Part shown: positions 99-5,715 of the stretch, piece by piece
Position numbering within the stretch: position 1 is the stretch's first letter
Layout of the letters: each line of letters starts with the position of its first letter
From: Halobacteriales archaeon
GTDB lineage: Archaea > Thermoplasmatota > E2 > JACPAO01 > JAHFTW01
DNA: 5,715 bases
Assembly (NCBI GenBank): GCA_020201445.1
Contig: JAIVGU010000232.1
Location: 1-5,715, forward strand
Direction of reading: 5' to 3'
Position numbers and translations under genes: made by a program
The notes under the pieces: model-generated
Database searches by the model: none
The model's input: the letters and a program-made list of their open reading frames with translations, nothing else
Told to the model about the DNA's origin: nothing

Positions 99-1088
99 AT
101 GAAGCTGGATGAGGCGGCCCCGGCCCCCGCGCCGACCTCCACCGTGGCGGAGTTGGCCACCCCGCACCCGCCGCTGCCGGTGACGGCGGCCGAGTACCGC
201 GGGACCGCCGCCCTGCTGGCGTTCTTCGTGGCGACCATGCTCCTGGCGGTGGCGTTCGCGGCGCCGTTCAAGACGGCGGGGCTGCAGGCGTTCGAGAACC
301 CGGAGGAGGTCAGCAACTCCCTCTGGTACATCGCGCTCATCCTCGCCTTCACGTTCCTCATCCTCTACATCGCGAAGAAGGGTGCCAAGTGGCTCATCCG
401 CCTCATCATCCTCACCACGGTCGCCCTCACCATCGGCTACGTCGCGTATCCGCTCCTGGCCGTGACGCTGGCGCTGCCGGCGATGACGGCGCTCGGCGTC
501 GCGGGCGCCATCGCCCTGGGCTCCGTGGCGGCGCTCTACTGGCACCCGGAGTGGTACGTCGTCGACGCGGTGGGGCTGCTGGTCGCGGCCGGCTCCGCCG
601 CCATCTTCGGCATCAGCCTCGGCCTGGTCCCGGTCGTGGTGCTGCTGGGGCTTCTCGCCGTGTACGACGCGGTGGCGGTCTACCGCACCAAGCACATGCT
701 GAGCCTCGCCGACACGGTCATCGAGCTGCGCCTGCCGGTGCTGCTGGTCATCCCCAAGCACGGCGGCTACCGCTTCCGCTCCGAGGCCGCACACCTGCGC
801 CAGGCCAGCGAGGCGACGAAGGCGCAGCGCGAGGCGATGTTCATGGGCCTGGGCGACCTCGTGATGCCCACCATCCTGGTCGTCTCCTCCCTCCAGTTCG
901 CCCAGCCGGGCTGGGGGCCGTTCCCCGCCCTCGGCGCGGCGCTGGGGACGCTGGTGGGCTTCGGGGTGCTGATGGGCTACGTCCTGCGCGGCAACCCCCA
1001 GGCGGGCCTGCCGCTCCTGAACGGCGGCGCCCTGGTGGGCTTCCTGATGGGGGTCTACTTCGCCACCAAGGGCTTGGTCTTCTGGTGA
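99..1088 (+). CDS. Presenilin/signal-peptide-peptidase-like intramembrane aspartyl protease (archaeal PSH family)
   Basis: Predicted 329-residue GxGD aspartyl protease that would cleave transmembrane helices within the membrane. After an Ala/Pro-rich tail of about 35 residues, about nine hydrophobic segments can be traced (near 36-56, 74-91, 97-120, 121-145, 152-171, 173-195, 250-268, 275-297 and 303-325). The family's catalytic signatures are all present and in order: VYDAVAVY with Asp190 in the sixth segment, MGLGDLVMP with Asp253 in the seventh, and GLPLLNGG (Pro305), the archaeal form of the PAL motif, at the start of the ninth. Length suits archaeal members. The frame is open upstream to a TTG at 6, but ATG 99 is preferred because a TATA-like box lies about 27 bases before it and the extra 31 residues look like translated promoter. 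Substrates cannot be told from sequence. The next gene appears to have its own promoter, so no operon is claimed. Confidence 0.9.
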   Translation: MKLDEAAPAPAPTSTVAELATPHPPLPVTAAEYRGTAALLAFFVATMLLAVAFAAPFKTAGLQAFENPEEVSNSLWYIALILAFTFLILYIAKKGAKWLIRLIILTTVALTIGYVAYPLLAVTLALPAMTALGVAGAIALGSVAALYWHPEWYVVDAVGLLVAAGSAAIFGISLGLVPVVVLLGLLAVYDAVAVYRTKHMLSLADTVIELRLPVLLVIPKHGGYRFRSEAAHLRQASEATKAQREAMFMGLGDLVMPTILVVSSLQFAQPGWGPFPALGAALGTLVGFGVLMGYVLRGNPQAGLPLLNGGALVGFLMGVYFATKGLVFW

Positions 1089-1156
1089 CCCCGCAACCCC
1101 CGAGGAAAACCCACGCTCCGGCCTTCCTGGAGCCCCTCCGGGCGAAGAAGAAAGAG

Positions 1157-1162
1157 TTTAAG
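1157..1162 (+). promoter_or_regulatory. TATA-like box of the PRC-barrel gene
   Basis: TTTAAG follows a purine-rich run (GAAGAAGAAAGAG, about 1144-1156) that could serve as a BRE. It lies in the 107-base gap between the protease stop and the PRC-barrel start. A start site about 26 bases downstream would fall near 1185-1188, leaving a leader of only about 8-11 bases before the TTG at 1196. The AT island stands out against the surrounding GC-rich DNA. The promoter role is inferred. Confidence 0.5.
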
Positions 1163-1195
1163 CGGCCAGGGCATGGGACGTTCCAGGGATGCCGC

Positions 1196-1477
1196 TTGGA
1201 CGCTGAGGTCACTTCCTTCATCAATCTCCCCGTCTACACGCACGGGGGCCACTACGTCGGTGTGGTGCAGAACGTCCTCCTGGACCTGCCCAACCGCAAG
1301 GTCGGGAGCCTGGTCCTGACGCGCACCAACAGCAAGCTCATCGAGGGCGGCTACAACGTCGCCGTCCCGTACCGCTGGGTCGCCTCGAAGGGCGACATCG
1401 TCATCCTGAGCCACTTCCCGGAGAAGGTCATCGCTCAGCCTGCCGGCGCCCAGCAGGAAGAAGAGCTGACGGCGTAG
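1196..1477 (+). CDS. Small PRC-barrel domain protein, CdpB-like
   Basis: A 93-residue single-domain PRC-barrel protein. Visible family features are the N-terminal strand with LPVYTHGGHYVGVVQNVLLD, a middle section NRKVGSLVLT, and the closing VPYRWVASKGDIVIL, followed by a short Gln/Glu-rich tail. The YRWV..GDIVI ending is typical of archaeal single-domain PRC-barrel proteins. Some of these (CdpB1/CdpB2 of Haloferax) work in FtsZ/SepF-based cell division, so a division role is possible here but is not shown by this sequence. The frame is open far upstream, but that part is only the shadow of the protease gene. TTG 1196 is chosen because it sits directly before the family's usual N-terminus (MDAEVTSFINLPVY), no ATG or GTG occurs nearby in frame, and a TATA-like box lies about 37 bases upstream. 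No neighbour points to a specific function. Confidence 0.82.
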   Translation: MDAEVTSFINLPVYTHGGHYVGVVQNVLLDLPNRKVGSLVLTRTNSKLIEGGYNVAVPYRWVASKGDIVILSHFPEKVIAQPAGAQQEEELTA

Positions 1478-1636: not shown

Positions 1637-1650
1637 GGGGCGCTTGCCCC
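1637..1650 (+). terminator. Possible terminator-like hairpin
   Basis: GGGGC-GCTT-GCCCC is a perfect 5-bp GC stem with a 4-base loop, followed by CTTTAG. The short T-stretch gives it a weak terminator look. Archaeal termination relies mostly on T-runs, and three T's is meagre, so this is a low-confidence call. It overlaps the TTG at 1644, which is a further reason to doubt that codon as a start. Confidence 0.25.
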
Positions 1651-1656
1651 CTTTAG
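1651..1656 (+). promoter_or_regulatory. Weak TATA-like candidate for the cyanophycin operon
   Basis: CTTTAG is the best AT-rich hexamer upstream of the isoaspartyl peptidase gene. A start site about 26 bases on (near 1680) would give a leader of about 40 bases that includes the 1684-1700 hairpin and the Shine-Dalgarno sequence. It matches an archaeal TATA box only loosely and is flanked by GC-rich DNA. Confidence 0.22.
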
Positions 1657-1683
1657 CGTGGCGGCGGCTTAGGGGGGGTCCTG

Positions 1684-1700
1684 CCTGGGCGCCGCCCAGG
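1684..1700 (+). promoter_or_regulatory. Strong hairpin just upstream of the operon's first ribosome binding site
   Basis: CCTGGGC and GCCCAGG form a perfect 7-bp stem around a 3-base GCC loop. TTTCC and then the GGGAGGG Shine-Dalgarno sequence follow directly. Placed in the predicted 5' leader, it could influence ribosome access or stop transcription before the operon. No known riboswitch family is recognised. Confidence 0.4.
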
Positions 1701-1705
1701 TTTCC

Positions 1706-1712
1706 GGGAGGG
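1706..1712 (+). promoter_or_regulatory. Shine-Dalgarno sequence of the isoaspartyl peptidase gene
   Basis: GGGAGGG contains the GGAGG core at 1707-1711. Seven bases separate this core from the ACG at 1719. The cphA gene has the same seven-base gap between its GGAGG and its ATG, so this site points to initiation at 1719. The next in-frame standard start, GTG 1731, is 19 bases from the core, which is too far for normal pairing. Confidence 0.55.
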
Positions 1713-1718
1713 ACCACC

Positions 1719-2615
1719 ACGCATCTCGCCGTGGCGCACGGAGGCGCCGCCAGCAGCCCCATGGACCGTGACGGCCCCGAGGCAGCGTGCCGGCGGGCCC
1801 TCGAGACCCTGGGGCGCGGCGGCTCGCCCCTGCAGGCGGCGGTGGAGGGCTGCTCGCTGCTGGAGGACGACCACCGCTTCAACGCCGGCACCGGCAGCAA
1901 CCTCCGCCTCGACGGCAAGACCATCGAGATGGACGCCTCCTGCATGACCTCGGACGGCAAGTACGGCGCCGTCGCCTGCATCCGCGACGTGCGCCACCCC
2001 GTCGAGGTCGCGGCCCTGGTCCACTCCACGCCGCACAACCTGCTGGTGGGGGAGGGCGCCATCGCGTTCGCCCGCATGCACGGCCACCCGCCGTACGACC
2101 CGTTCACGCCCGAGGCCAAGCGGCGCTACGACGAGGTGCGCAAGGTGCTGCGGCTGGCCAAGGCGCAGGCGGAGGAGTACTCCTGGGACATGACCACCCT
2201 GGCGCTGCACTGGAACTACCCGCAGGACATCAAGTCCATGCTGGGCGACAGCGACACCGTGGGGGTGCTCGCCACCGACGGCCGCACCTTCGCCGCCGCC
2301 AGCAGCACCGGCGGCACCATCAGCACCCTCCTGGGCCGGGTCGGCGACGTCCCCCTCATCGGCTGCGGCATCTACGCCGGCCCCAAGGGCGCCGTCGCGG
2401 TGACGGGCGCGGGCGACTTCCTGGCGCGCCAGATGCTCAGCCGCCGCATCTACGTGGAGCTGGAGGCGGGGCGCCCGCCGTCCGCCGTCCTGGAGGAGGC
2501 GTGCAGCCTCTTCCCCACCCACGTCGACGTGGGCGCCATCGCGCTCTTCGGCGAGGCGTGGGCCGGCCACAGCAACCGCGACATGGCGTGGGCCGCGCAT
2601 CGGGGGGCGCCGTGA
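1719..2615 (+). CDS. Plant-type isoaspartyl peptidase / L-asparaginase (Ntn hydrolase)
   Basis: Threonine N-terminal-nucleophile hydrolase that would split beta-Asp-Arg dipeptides, the product of cyanophycinase, into Asp and Arg in the cytoplasm. Counting from 1719 (298 residues), HLAVAHGGA forms the first strand and FNAGTGSNL and MDASCM are family motifs. The precursor should self-cleave before Thr180 in GDSDTVGVLATD, giving alpha and beta chains. Other active-site parts are STGG (Thr197), GRVGD (Arg207, Asp210) and TGAGD (Thr229, Gly230). These closely match Thr179, Thr197, Arg207, Asp210, Thr230 and Gly231 of E. coli IaaA as I recall them. The start is unsettled. TTG 1644 would add a Pro/Arg-rich leader and overlap a hairpin, GTG 1731 would remove the first strand, and ACG 1719 fits the Shine-Dalgarno spacing and the family N-terminus but is not a normal start. 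The stop overlaps the GTG of cphB. Asparaginase activity is also possible; the operon favours the dipeptide role. Confidence 0.88.
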   Translation, partial: THLAVAHGGAASSPMDRDGPEAACRRALETLGRGGSPLQAAVEGCSLLEDDHRFNAGTGSNLRLDGKTIEMDASCMTSDGKYGAVACIRDVRHPVEVAALVHSTPHNLLVGEGAIAFARMHGHPPYDPFTPEAKRRYDEVRKVLRLAKAQAEEYSWDMTTLALHWNYPQDIKSMLGDSDTVGVLATDGRTFAAASSTGGTISTLLGRVGDVPLIGCGIYAGPKGAVAVTGAGDFLARQMLSRRIYVELEAGRPPSAVLEEACSLFPTHVDVGAIALFGEAWAGHSNRDMAWAAHRGAP

Positions 2616-3460
2616 CGCCGGACCGCGTGCCCGCCCCGCGCGGCCTCCTGGTGGCCATCGGCGGCAACGAGGACAAGGAGTTCGGCAAGACCGTCCTCAA
2701 GCGCGTCACCGACCTGCCCGAGGGAGGCTCCGAGGTGGTCGAGGTCATCCCCACCGCCTCCAGCATCCCGCGCACCGTCGCGGACGACTACGTCAAGGCG
2801 TTCGGCAAGCTCGGCATCAAGACCGTCAACGTCATGGACATGCAGGACCGCGACGCCGCCGACCGCAAGGAATTCGCCGAGCGCATCCGCGCCTGCGACG
2901 TCGTCTACTTCACCGGCGGCGACCAGCTCCGCCTCACCAGCCTGCTGGGCGGCACCAAGGTGGCGCGCGCCATCAAGGAGCACTACTGGAACGGCGGCGT
3001 GGTGGCCGGCACCAGCGCGGGCGCCGCGGCGATGAGCGCCACCATGATCTTCGAGTCCAAGCCCGAGGGCGTGATGCGCAAGGGGTCGGTCCAGATGACC
3101 CCCGGCCTGGGCCTCATCAAGAGCTGCGTCATCGACACCCACTTCCTCGACCGCGGCCGCCTGAGCCGCCTGCTGGAGGTCGTCACCAGCAACCCGGGCT
3201 ACATCGGGCTCGGCATCGGCGAGGACACCGGCATCATCATCCGCGACGGCGAGCGCGTCGAGGTCATCGGCGCCGGCGTGGCGGTCGTCGTGGACGGCCA
3301 CCACCTGCGCTACACCAACATCAGCGACATCGGCATCGGCGAGGCCATCGCCGTGCAGAACATCATCGTCCACACCCTGGTGCAGGGGCACCTCTACCAC
3401 CTGGCCGACCAGCGCCTCGAGGTCCCCCCGCCCGCCAAGAAAAAGGAGGAACGAGCATGA
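2612..3460 (+). CDS. cphB: Cyanophycinase
   Basis: A 282-residue serine exopeptidase of peptidase family S51 that would degrade cyanophycin to beta-Asp-Arg dipeptides. Visible motifs are the N-terminal strand GLLVAIGGNED, YFTGGDQLRL at about 99-108 (Gln105), the nucleophile elbow AGTSAGAAAMS with Ser135, and IDTHFLDRGRLSRL at about 174-187 with catalytic His177 and pocket residues Asp175, Arg181, Arg183 and Arg186. GIGEDTGIII follows. Length and spacing match cyanobacterial CphB of about 270 residues with Ser132. Where Synechocystis CphB has Gln after the pocket Asp, this protein has Thr176. GTG 2612 is chosen because it overlaps the preceding TGA (GTGA) and lies just before the family N-terminus. 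A GGGGGG run at 2602-2607 is only a weak ribosome site, so start-up probably relies on ribosomes finishing the upstream gene. The Lys/Glu-rich C-terminal tail is encoded by the bases that form the cphA ribosome site. Confidence 0.94.
   Translation: MTPDRVPAPRGLLVAIGGNEDKEFGKTVLKRVTDLPEGGSEVVEVIPTASSIPRTVADDYVKAFGKLGIKTVNVMDMQDRDAADRKEFAERIRACDVVYFTGGDQLRLTSLLGGTKVARAIKEHYWNGGVVAGTSAGAAAMSATMIFESKPEGVMRKGSVQMTPGLGLIKSCVIDTHFLDRGRLSRLLEVVTSNPGYIGLGIGEDTGIIIRDGERVEVIGAGVAVVVDGHHLRYTNISDIGIGEAIAVQNIIVHTLVQGHLYHLADQRLEVPPPAKKKEERA
3443..3450 (+). promoter_or_regulatory. Strong Shine-Dalgarno sequence of cphA
   Basis: AAGGAGGA lies inside the end of cphB and stands seven bases (from the GGAGG core) before the ATG at 3457. 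It is the best ribosome binding site in the window and settles the cphA start. Together with the ATGA overlap it predicts efficient independent or coupled translation of the synthetase. Confidence 0.8.
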
Positions 3461-5715
3461 AGATCGTCGAGCACCGCGCCCTCCCGGGCCCCAACCACCA
3501 CAGCCCGTACCCGACCGTCCGCCTCGTGCTGGACCTCGAGGGGCTGGCCGAGACGCCGACCTCGGAGCTGGCGGGCTTCCCCAAGGCCCTGCAGACGCTC
3601 CTGCCCAGCCTGGCGGAGCACCGCTGCAGCCCCGAGCACCCCGGCGGCTTCCTGGAGCGCCTGCAGGAGGGGACGCTGCTGGGCCACGTCATCGAGCACG
3701 TCGCGCTGGAGCTGCAGTGCCTCGCCGGGATGCACGTCGGCTTCGGCAAGACCCGCGCCACCCGCGTCCCCGGCCGCTACGCCATCGTCTACCGCTACCG
3801 CGACGCCGAGGCCGGCATCGAGGCGGGCCGCATGGCGGTCGAGGTGGTGGAGGGCCTCCTGGACGGCGACCCGCCCCGGCTGGCGCCCATGGTGGAGGAG
3901 CTGCGGCGCCTGCAGGCCCGCAACGCGCTGGGCCCCTCGACGGACGCCATCGTGCGCGAGGCGCGCCGCCGCGGCATCCCGGTGACCCGCCTCGACGAGG
4001 GCAACTACCTCCAGCTCGGGCAGGGCGCCCGCCAGCAGCGCATCCAGGCCAGCCTGACCGGCCGGACGAGCTGCATCGGCGCCGAGATTGCCGACGACAA
4101 GGAGCGCACCAAGCGCATCCTCTCCGAGGCGGGCGTCCCGGTGCCGCGCGGCGACGTCGTCTCCTCCTGGGAGGGCGCCCTCGACGTGGCGCGCGACTTC
4201 GGCTACCCCGTCGTCCTCAAGCCCCTGGTGGGCAACCACGGCCGCGGCGTCACCACCGACATCCAGGACGAGGCGCAGCTGCGGGCCGCCTTCGACGCGG
4301 CGCAGGCCATCCACCGCCACGTCCTCGTCGAGCAGTTCCTGCAGGGCGACGACTTCCGCGTCCTGGTGGTCAACCACCGCTTCGTGGCCGCCGCGCGGCG
4401 CGACCCCGCCATGGTCACCGGCAACGGCACCAGCACCATCGCGCAGCTGGTGGACCAGGCCAACCGCGACCCCCGCCGCGGCGAGGCGCACGACAACTTC
4501 CTCACCCGCATCGACCTCGACGGGCACAGCCTGGAGCTGCTGGCGCGCGAGGGGCTCACCCCCGACTCCGTCCCCGCCGTGGGGCAGGTGGTGCGGCTCA
4601 AGGGGACCGCGAACCTGAGCACCGGCGGCACCGCCACCGACGTGACCGCCGAGGCGCACCCGCACGTGCGGCGGATGTGCGAGCGCATCAGCCGCCTCGT
4701 CGGCCTCGACCTCATCGGCATCGACGTCGTGGCCCCCCACCTGCGCCAGCCGCTGCGCGAGACCCGCGGCGGCGTCGTGGAGGTCAACGCGGCGCCCGGG
4801 CTCCGGATGCACGCCCAGCCCAGCAGCGGCCGGCCGCTCAACGTCGGCGCGCCCATCGTCGACATGCTGTTCCCCAACCGCGCCGACGGCCGTATCCCAG
4901 TCCTCGCCGTGACCGGCACGAACGGCAAGACGACAACGGTGCGCATCATCAGCCACATCCTCCGGGCCCATGGGGCGAGGGTCGGCCTGGCCACGACGAC
5001 GGGCGTGGAGGTCGACGGCGACCCGGTCATGGAGGGCGACTACTCCGGCCCGGAGGGGGCGCGCGTCGTCCTGGGCGACCCCATCGTCGACCACGCGGTG
5101 CTGGAGGTGGCGCGGGGCGGCATCCTGCGCCGCGGCCTCGGCTACGACCGCGCCGACGTCGGGGTCCTGCTCAACGTCGCCAGCGACCACCTCGGCGAGG
5201 GCGGCATCGAGACGCTGGAGGACCTCGCCGACCTCAAGGCGGTCGTGGTGGAGAACGTGGCGCGCAACGGCACGGCGGTGCTGAACGCGGACGACGACCT
5301 GGCGCACGGCTACGTCGACCGGCTGCGCTCGCGGGTCACGCTGTTCTCCCTCAACGGCGACTCGCCCCGCGTCGCCGAGCACGTGCAGCGCAGCGGCCGC
5401 GCCGTAACCCTCAACGGCAACTCCGTGGTGGTGCGCGACGGCGTCGGCGACGAGCTGGTGGGCGACGTCCGCGACTTCCCGGTGACCCTGCGCGGCGCCG
5501 CGCGCTTCAACGTCCAAAACGTCCTCGCCGCCGTCGCCGCGTGCCACGCCATCGGCGTGCCGTGCGAGGCCATCCGCCGCGCGCTGGAGACCTTCCACGC
5601 CTCGCCCGAGCACCTGCCCGGCCGCCTCAACGTGGTGGAGATGGAGGGCTACACGGTGCTGGTCGACTACGGCCACAACGTCCCCGCGCTGCAGGCCCTC
5701 GCCCCCGTGGTGGAG
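3457..5715 (+). CDS. cphA: Cyanophycin synthetase, 3' end beyond the window
   Basis: ATP-dependent ligase that adds Asp to the polymer backbone and Arg to each Asp side chain. The first 753 residues are present; about 120-150 are missing compared with the usual 870-900. The N-domain (about 1-160) begins MKIVEHRALPGPN and holds GHVIEHVALELQ (His77, Glu80, His81). The ATP-grasp domain (about 160-470) has the KPLVGNHGRG loop (255-264), TANLSTGGTA and EVNAAPG with metal ligands Glu442 and Asn444. It would activate the backbone carboxyl and add Asp. The Mur-ligase-like domain starts with the P-loop GTNGKTTT (487-494), then ARGGILRRGLG (552-562), SDHLG (576-580), NADDD (610-614), LPGRLN (720-725) and VDYGHN (736-741). 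It would add Arg. ATG 3457 overlaps the cphB stop (ATGA) and has an excellent Shine-Dalgarno. No frameshift or broken motif is seen. The domain order fits primer-using CphA1 rather than the dipeptide ligase CphA2. Confidence 0.96.
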   Translation, partial: MKIVEHRALPGPNHHSPYPTVRLVLDLEGLAETPTSELAGFPKALQTLLPSLAEHRCSPEHPGGFLERLQEGTLLGHVIEHVALELQCLAGMHVGFGKTRATRVPGRYAIVYRYRDAEAGIEAGRMAVEVVEGLLDGDPPRLAPMVEELRRLQARNALGPSTDAIVREARRRGIPVTRLDEGNYLQLGQGARQQRIQASLTGRTSCIGAEIADDKERTKRILSEAGVPVPRGDVVSSWEGALDVARDFGYPVVLKPLVGNHGRGVTTDIQDEAQLRAAFDAAQAIHRHVLVEQFLQGDDFRVLVVNHRFVAAARRDPAMVTGNGTSTIAQLVDQANRDPRRGEAHDNFLTRIDLDGHSLELLAREGLTPDSVPAVGQVVRLKGTANLSTGGTATDVTAEAHPHVRRMCERISRLVGLDLIGIDVVAPHLRQPLRETRGGVVEVNAAPGLRMHAQPSSGRPLNVGAPIVDMLFPNRADGRIPVLAVTGTNGKTTTVRIISHILRAHGARVGLATTTGVEVDGDPVMEGDYSGPEGARVVLGDPIVDHAVLEVARGGILRRGLGYDRADVGVLLNVASDHLGEGGIETLEDLADLKAVVVENVARNGTAVLNADDDLAHGYVDRLRSRVTLFSLNGDSPRVAEHVQRSGRAVTLNGNSVVVRDGVGDELVGDVRDFPVTLRGAARFNVQNVLAAVAACHAIGVPCEAIRRALETFHASPEHLPGRLNVVEMEGYTVLVDYGHNVPALQALAPVVE

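What the first reader, a model, noticed from the sequence alone, without database searches (positions are those of the whole stretch)
1719..5715. Complete cyanophycin make-and-break operon in an apparently archaeal genome
Isoaspartyl peptidase, cyanophycinase and cyanophycin synthetase are consecutive, same-strand and overlapping, with all main catalytic motifs readable. Cyanophycin is best known from cyanobacteria and other bacteria. Here the operon follows a PSH-type intramembrane protease and a CdpB-like PRC-barrel gene, both archaeal in character. If the host is an archaeon, this implies an Arg/Asp nitrogen, carbon and energy reserve there. Base use matches the flanking genes, so any transfer is not recent. 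The archaeal origin and the activity are inferred; the gene families are read from sequence.
Basis: partly seen in the sequence, partly recalled or inferred. Interest (0 to 1): 0.7.

Follow-up and report, generated by a model that had tools for sequence, protein, structure and literature searches.

The report
Archaeal operon to make/degrade cyanophycin
A stretch of DNA from what is very likely an uncultured archaeon (Thermoplasmatota) carries, side by side, genes predicted to build the nitrogen-rich storage polymer cyanophycin and to break it down again, a storage system described mainly from bacteria.

Summary
Three same-strand genes with 4-nt overlaps encode an Asparaginase_2 Ntn-hydrolase (about 1719-2615), a cyanophycinase CphB (2612-3460) and a cyanophycin synthetase CphA1 (3457 to the window end). 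CphA is cut by the window edge (753 of about 900 residues), so 'complete' cannot be seen here, and codon 1719 is ACG, not a standard start. CphA and CphB pass curated cut-offs and keep the published catalytic residues checked, including the primer-making motif Cx19HxxEH. An archaeal host is supported: the best-scoring named relatives of PSH, hydrolase and CphA are archaeal, nearly all Thermoplasmatota, and relatives of all three list one contig length (236,840), which argues against a chimera. Function is inferred; nothing was assayed. The new point is the first gene: not an IaaA by the curated model, but a separate subfamily that goes with cphA. 15 of 120 listed relatives share a contig length with a listed CphA, and it adjoins cphA in 2 of 2 signature-bearing Planctomycetota genomes against 0 of 14 with close relatives lacking the signature. 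Against this, 10 of 20 relatives on contigs of 20 kb or more match no listed CphA. I read it as a dedicated beta-Asp-Arg hydrolase.

The parts
99..1088 (+). presenilin-family intramembrane aspartyl protease PSH (context gene, archaeal kin)
   Evidence: NF041679 317 bits, cut-off 125; 11 of 12 named relatives Thermoplasmata/Thermoplasmatota
1085..1477 (+). PRC-barrel protein (context gene; overlaps the PSH stop by 4 nt)
   Evidence: PF05239 38.6 bits; the 'CdpB-like' label was not tested
1719..2615 (+). Asparaginase_2 Ntn-hydrolase of a cphA-linked subfamily, predicted to split beta-Asp-Arg; true start uncertain (GTG 1731, TTG 1644, or a non-standard codon near 1716-1719)
   Evidence: PF01112 191 bits; AF2 pLDDT 85, best PDB hit human ASRGL1; clade and linkage
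2253..2258 (+). Asp-Thr: predicted autocleavage site, nucleophile Thr180 (numbered from 1719)
   Evidence: aligned to EcIaaA T179, position checked; DT[VIL][GA] in 118 of 120 relatives
2612..3460 (+). cyanophycinase CphB, GTG start
   Evidence: TIGR02069 241 bits; 7uqv, 3en0 and 7uqw best PDB hits
3014..3016 (+). CphB catalytic Ser135 in GTSAG (Synechocystis Ser132)
   Evidence: alignment, position checked; residues as listed in PMC3235067
3457..5715 (+). cyanophycin synthetase CphA1, cut by the window end
   Evidence: TIGR02068 1030 bits; 7lg5 best PDB hit
3625..3699 (+). CphA N-domain primer-making motif Cx19HxxEH (residues 57-81)
   Evidence: function from PMC9262961
4237..4239 (+). CphA G-domain His261 (SuCphA1 H267)
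   Evidence: alignment, position checked; H267A is an inactivating mutation in PMC9262961
4915..4935 (+). CphA M-domain nucleotide loop GTNGKTT
5185..5190 (+). CphA M-domain Asp577-His578 (SuCphA1 D585 H586)
   Evidence: alignment, position checked; D585A H586A inactivates the M domain in PMC9262961

Best explanation
The window lies in a Thermoplasmatota archaeon and carries a self-contained cyanophycin cycle. CphA1 joins Asp to the backbone (ATP-grasp G domain) and Arg to each Asp side chain (Mur-ligase M domain), and its zinc-type N domain cuts some polymer into primers, so no outside primer is needed. When nitrogen, carbon or energy is wanted, the serine peptidase CphB cuts the backbone to beta-Asp-Arg, and the Ntn-hydrolase, after cutting itself before Thr180, splits the dipeptide to Asp and Arg. 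Shown here: gene families, catalytic residues, gene order, archaeal kin, recurrence of the hydrolase with CphA. Inferred: activity, storage role, co-transcription, and that the hydrolase acts on beta-Asp-Arg.
For: Equivalog matches over cut-off for CphA and CphB. CphA: Cx19HxxEH, H261, GTNGKTT, D577 H578 present; Cx19HxxEH in 116 of 120 listed relatives. CphB: Q105, S135, D175, R181, R183, R186 stand at Synechocystis Q101, S132, D172, R178, R180, R183; T176 stands for Q173, as in the active enzyme CphEal. Hydrolase: six of the seven EcIaaA residues named in PMC10206079 kept. Recurrence: 15 of 120 listed CphA share a contig length with a listed hydrolase (11 of the best 19), whereas of 119 PSH contig lengths only 236840 is shared. 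Signature hydrolase next to cphA, with a divergent cphB, in both Planctomycetota genomes that have it.
Against: No activity, expression or granule data. The two hydrolases from cyanophycin clusters tested in PMC10206079 (an IadA and an IaaA) were not specific for beta-Asp-Arg, so linkage need not mean dedication. S211 of EcIaaA, which contacts the Asp part of the substrate, is Val here. Residues 150-157 and 201-208 of the model have pLDDT under 50. Equal contig lengths do not give distances. No genome for the window.
Confidence: 0.78

Rival explanations
1. The first gene is an ordinary isoaspartyl peptidase or asparaginase used for protein repair or Asn use, which sits beside cphB-cphA and helps in cyanophycin breakdown only through broad specificity.
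For: RhIaaA from the Roseivivax cyanophycin cluster is promiscuous (PMC10206079). PDB comparison puts the protein about equally near ASRGL1, glycosylasparaginase and EcAIII. 10 of 20 relatives on contigs of 20 kb or more match no listed CphA.
Against: In the tree a 119-row clade holds all 15 contig-linked rows and both cphA-adjacent Planctomycetota rows, while in the 14 Planctomycetota genomes whose relatives lack the signature none has cphA beside it and one has a cphA on another contig.
Confidence: 0.37
2. The contig is bacterial, or a chimera of archaeal and bacterial DNA joined between 1477 and 1719.
For: CphA is best known from bacteria; 16 of 30 named CphA relatives are bacterial; no host genome is held.
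Against: The MAG could be mis-binned, but one contig holding all three is not explained by binning.
Confidence: 0.04
3. The synthetase makes a related but different polymer, or acts as CphA2 on dipeptides.
For: Related ATP-grasp and Mur ligases make many amide products (weaker matches).
Against: TIGR02068 cut-off passed with a truncated protein; the N-domain motif, said in PMC9262961 to be absent from CphA2, is present. A cyanophycinase is next door.
Confidence: 0.08
4. The operon serves uptake and use of cyanophycin made by others rather than storage.
For: Culexarchaeia are proposed to degrade cyanophycin (PMC9723716).
Against: A synthetase is in the operon; CphB shows no signal peptide by eye and its best PDB matches are CphB-type cyanophycinases; none of the five genes is a transporter by Pfam, though the window is short.
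Confidence: 0.05

Closest known systems
Bacterial cphA1-cphB-iaaA clusters, e.g. Roseivivax halodurans (L001; PMC10206079)
   Same: Synthetase, cyanophycinase and an Asparaginase_2 hydrolase side by side; CphA 51% identical, CphB 43% identical with the same DTHF motif
   Different: Archaeal host; all three genes on one strand in the order hydrolase-cphB-cphA; in Roseivivax the hydrolase is the crystallised IaaA 8dqm and lies on the opposite strand
IaaA / EcAIII isoaspartyl peptidase (E. coli, R. halodurans)
   Same: Ntn fold, nucleophile Thr, Thr/Arg/Asp/Thr/Gly substrate set
   Different: Asp instead of Gly before the Thr, Ser211 to Val, C-terminal MAW, far below the IaaA cut-off; split from Ec and Rh IaaA by a branch of 2.85 changes per column
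Glycosylasparaginase (AGA)
   Same: Asp before the nucleophile Thr (His-Asp-Thr in 9gaf)
   Different: About 25% identity; Ser after GRVGD in 9gaf; the present subfamily is linked to cphA
Culexarchaeia cyanophycinase (PMC9723716)
   Same: Archaeal cyanophycinase gene
   Different: The passages seen report degradation only, in a TACK class, and mention no synthetase

Membership tests
CphA1 cyanophycin synthetase | Passes curated equivalog TIGR02068 | tested here: met
   1029.8 bits against 850, with the C-terminus cut by the window
CphA1 cyanophycin synthetase | G-domain His267 and M-domain Asp585-His586 (SuCphA1) | tested here: met
   H261, D577, H578 by the alignment (checked); roles
CphA1 cyanophycin synthetase | N-domain Cx19HxxEH (primer independence; said to be absent from CphA2; present in 83% of CphA1) | tested here: met
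   residues 57-81; PMC9262961
CphA1 cyanophycin synthetase | Makes Arg/Asp polymer | not testable with these tools
   needs an assay
Cyanophycinase CphB | Passes curated equivalog TIGR02069 | tested here: met
   241.2 bits against 126.6
Cyanophycinase CphB | S132, Q101, D172, Q173, R178, R180, R183 (Synechocystis) | tested here: met
   six of seven identical; Q173 is Thr, as in active CphEal
Cyanophycinase CphB | Cuts cyanophycin | not testable with these tools
   needs an assay
IaaA isoaspartyl peptidase | Passes curated equivalog NF007589 | tested here: not met
   98.5 bits against 567; all 51 members of alignment A1 touch the model, scores printed only for the window's protein
IaaA isoaspartyl peptidase | T179, T197, R207, D210, S211, T230, G231 | tested here: not met
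   six of seven kept, S211 is Val
Asparaginase_2 Ntn-hydrolase superfamily | PF01112 and fold | tested here: met
   191 bits against 27; TM about 0.8 to 4o0c
Glycosylasparaginase | Acts on GlcNAc-Asn | not testable with these tools
   needs an assay

The most novel reading that the evidence does not exclude
The first gene belongs to a separate Ntn-hydrolase subfamily dedicated to the cyanophycin dipeptide beta-Asp-Arg, shared by Thermoplasmatota and some Planctomycetota, so that these archaea run a full and old cyanophycin storage cycle with their own last enzyme in place of IaaA, IadA or CphZ.
Probability: 0.42. Interest if true: 0.62.

Novelty: new variant of a known kind. Interest (0 to 1): 0.47.

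Why it matters
Cyanophycin is written of as a bacterial polymer, and the cluster survey whose abstract and passages I saw (PMC10206079) looked at complete bacterial genomes only. A make-and-break operon in an archaeal phylum widens the range of nitrogen storage and gives archaeal CphA enzymes with a predicted built-in primer maker. The same authors write that last-step dipeptidases of some groups (Firmicutes, Bacteroidota) are still unknown; the cphA-linked subfamily described here shows that further types of last-step enzyme are worth looking for, although I did not test those groups.

Tried and rejected
Archaeal genome context could not be fetched: no genome for the window; the one genome-contig scan with CphA gave only 4 bacterial loci; viral-contig scans with PSH and CphA found no relative. 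A lead that the CphB DTHF motif was odd was dropped: R. halodurans CphB has it too and CphEal has Thr there. tRNA and Rfam scans of the window were empty. Two hairpins between 1625 and 1720 do not stand out from shuffled sequence: z -0.67 and -1.66; no terminator-like site and no sigma-70-type site at 1400-1800 (archaeal promoters are not covered). The hydrolase query had no match at E 1e-40 in 150 genomes of the Roseivivax phylum (the tool warns that without a positive control an empty answer shows nothing). The plasmid search with CphA gave 180 records, all under 60% identity; the 20 listed are bacterial, 160 were not listed.

Literature: searches 'cyanophycin'+'Thermoplasmatota' (1 paper), +'Thermoplasmata', +'archaeal genomes', +'archaea' (148 papers, 30 listed), +'haloarchaea', +'archaeal'+'cphA', and two broader ones with capped lists (30 of 677, 25 of 4,295). 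I saw these listings, and passages only of PMC9723716, PMC10206079, PMC9262961, PMC3235067, PMC12661447, PMC11915815, PMC7495880, PMC10591310 and PMC10687191. None of what I saw reports an archaeal cyanophycin synthetase; this covers open-licence papers only, and most listed papers were not opened. PMC7495880 has a figure legend with 'cph cyanophycin' for microbial dark matter MAGs, details not seen. PMC9974463 is not held. Public protein records already bear the automatic name cyanophycin synthetase for Thermoplasmatota.

On re-checking I added the 10 of 20 unmatched long contigs, and for that reason lowered the novel case from 0.45 to 0.42 and raised the first rival from 0.35 to 0.37.
Full report
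What is there. Read in the right frames the window holds five + strand genes: PSH 99-1088, a PRC-barrel protein 1085-1477, an Asparaginase_2 hydrolase ending at 2615, CphB 2612-3460 and CphA from 3457 to the end. CphA, CphB and PSH pass NCBI's equivalog cut-offs; the hydrolase does not pass the IaaA cut-off. CphA stops at residue 753 because the window stops; its 96% relative P0001 has 900 residues and the Mur_ligase_C domain.

Host. No whole genome is held for the window. Names given to relatives are the evidence: PSH 11 of 12 named rows Thermoplasmata/Thermoplasmatota, one 'bacterium'; hydrolase 10 of 10 named rows archaeal, 9 of them Thermoplasmata/Thermoplasmatota and one Halobacteriales; CphA 14 archaeal and 16 bacterial of 30 named rows, the 13 best-scoring named rows all archaeal. 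Each list has 120 rows, so most rows are unnamed. In a quick tree of 124 CphA rows (one short row, P0048, left out) the window sits in an 8-row group with support 84, inside it a 7-row set with support 96, made of rows named Thermoplasmata/Thermoplasmatota and unnamed rows; named archaea also occur in four other places of the tree, and the 31-row group that holds Halomonas, Fodinicurvata, Acuticoccus and Roseivivax is sister to a 9-row group with a named Thermoplasmatota. The rows are the best hits and 4 others and the root is a midpoint, so the tree says nothing firm about the direction of transfer.

Synthetase. By the alignment to SuCphA1 (7lg5), His261, Asp577 and His578 stand for the residues whose change inactivates the G and M domains (H267; D585 H586: PMC9262961; positions checked). 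Cys57-x19-His-x-x-Glu-His is the zinc-type motif that makes primers in primer-independent CphA1 and is said to be absent from CphA2; it is in the window and in 116 of 120 listed relatives. Primer independence is thus predicted, not shown.

Cyanophycinase. Of the seven residues named as critical or catalytic in Synechocystis CphB (Ser132, Gln101, Asp172, Gln173, Arg178, Arg180, Arg183) six are identical; Gln173 is Thr, as in the active CphEal, in R. halodurans and in two Planctomycetota.

Hydrolase. The predicted structure (mean pLDDT 85, 51 sequences; residues 150-157 and 201-208 under 50) matches ASRGL1, glycosylasparaginase and EcAIII. Against E. coli and R. halodurans IaaA (the latter identical over its alpha chain to the crystallised 8dqm) it keeps the nucleophile Thr and the Thr, Arg, Asp, Thr and Gly that bind aspartate, but Ser211 is Val. 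Among the 120 listed relatives Val stands there in 110, DT[VIL][GA] is found in 118 and MAW near the C-terminus in 117. The roles of the EcIaaA residues are from PMC10206079.

Linkage. Matching contig lengths between the two lists of 120 gives 15 CphA-hydrolase pairs, 11 of them among the best 19 CphA; 119 PSH lengths as a control share only 236840. All 15 linked hydrolases have Val at 211, which 110 of 120 have anyway. Against: of the 20 listed hydrolases on contigs of 20 kb or more, 10 match and 10 do not; of the best 22 CphA, 11 match and 11 do not, P0001 among the latter. In 392 genomes of one bacterial phylum (that of a Pirellula genome, so Planctomycetota by recalled taxonomy; the tool tells no group names) 16 have a relative at E 1e-55 or better. 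Two (G048, G538) carry the signature, and both have cphA next to it on the same strand, 29 and 23 bases between the matched stretches, with a divergent cphB. Of the other 14, one (G009) has a cphA, on another contig (threshold E 1e-150). In a quick tree of 143 rows a 119-row clade (support 96) holds the window, all 15 linked rows, all 10 named archaeal rows and the two cphA-adjacent Planctomycetota rows; six rows in it have Thr or Ala at 211 instead of Val, and most rows in it have unknown neighbours. Outside lie 24 rows: 18 other Planctomycetota rows, four listed relatives with Ser or Thr at 211, and E. coli and R. halodurans IaaA.

Reading. The simplest account is a storage cycle: CphA1 makes the polymer, CphB cuts it to beta-Asp-Arg, the hydrolase frees Asp and Arg. 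The last step is least sure. Sharon and Schmeing found one clustered IaaA and one clustered IadA to be unspecific; the present subfamily lies outside that IaaA but could be unspecific too.

Novelty. Gene clusters of this kind are known in bacteria, and the archaeal genes already have automatic names in databases. In the open-licence library I found an archaeal cyanophycinase proposal (PMC9723716) and no archaeal synthetase in the listings and passages seen. I therefore call it a new variant of a known kind.

Noticed in passing
window 1644-1731: The hydrolase frame has no ATG near its expected start; ACC ACG (1716-1721) stands where relatives P0244 and P0245 begin (MAHLAVAH, MTHLAVAH), behind a GGGAGGG stretch at 1706. 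GTG 1731, TTG 1644, a rare non-standard start, or a base error.
   Followed up: partly
L024 and L035: Two Planctomycetota genomes with divergent cphB - hydrolase - cphA clusters of the same hydrolase subfamily.
   Followed up: partly
window 1085-1088: PSH stop and PRC-barrel GTG start overlap by 4 nt, so the two may be co-expressed; no search was made with the PRC protein.
   Followed up: no
P0231: A PSH relative of 64% identity named only 'bacterium' on a 449,520-base contig, 454 residues long; perhaps a mislabelled archaeal MAG.
   Followed up: no
L014 (G025): A Planctomycetota hydrolase with Asp-Thr and MAW but Ser at position 211 is the row next outside the cphA-linked clade and its genome shows no cphA at E 1e-150.
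   Followed up: partly
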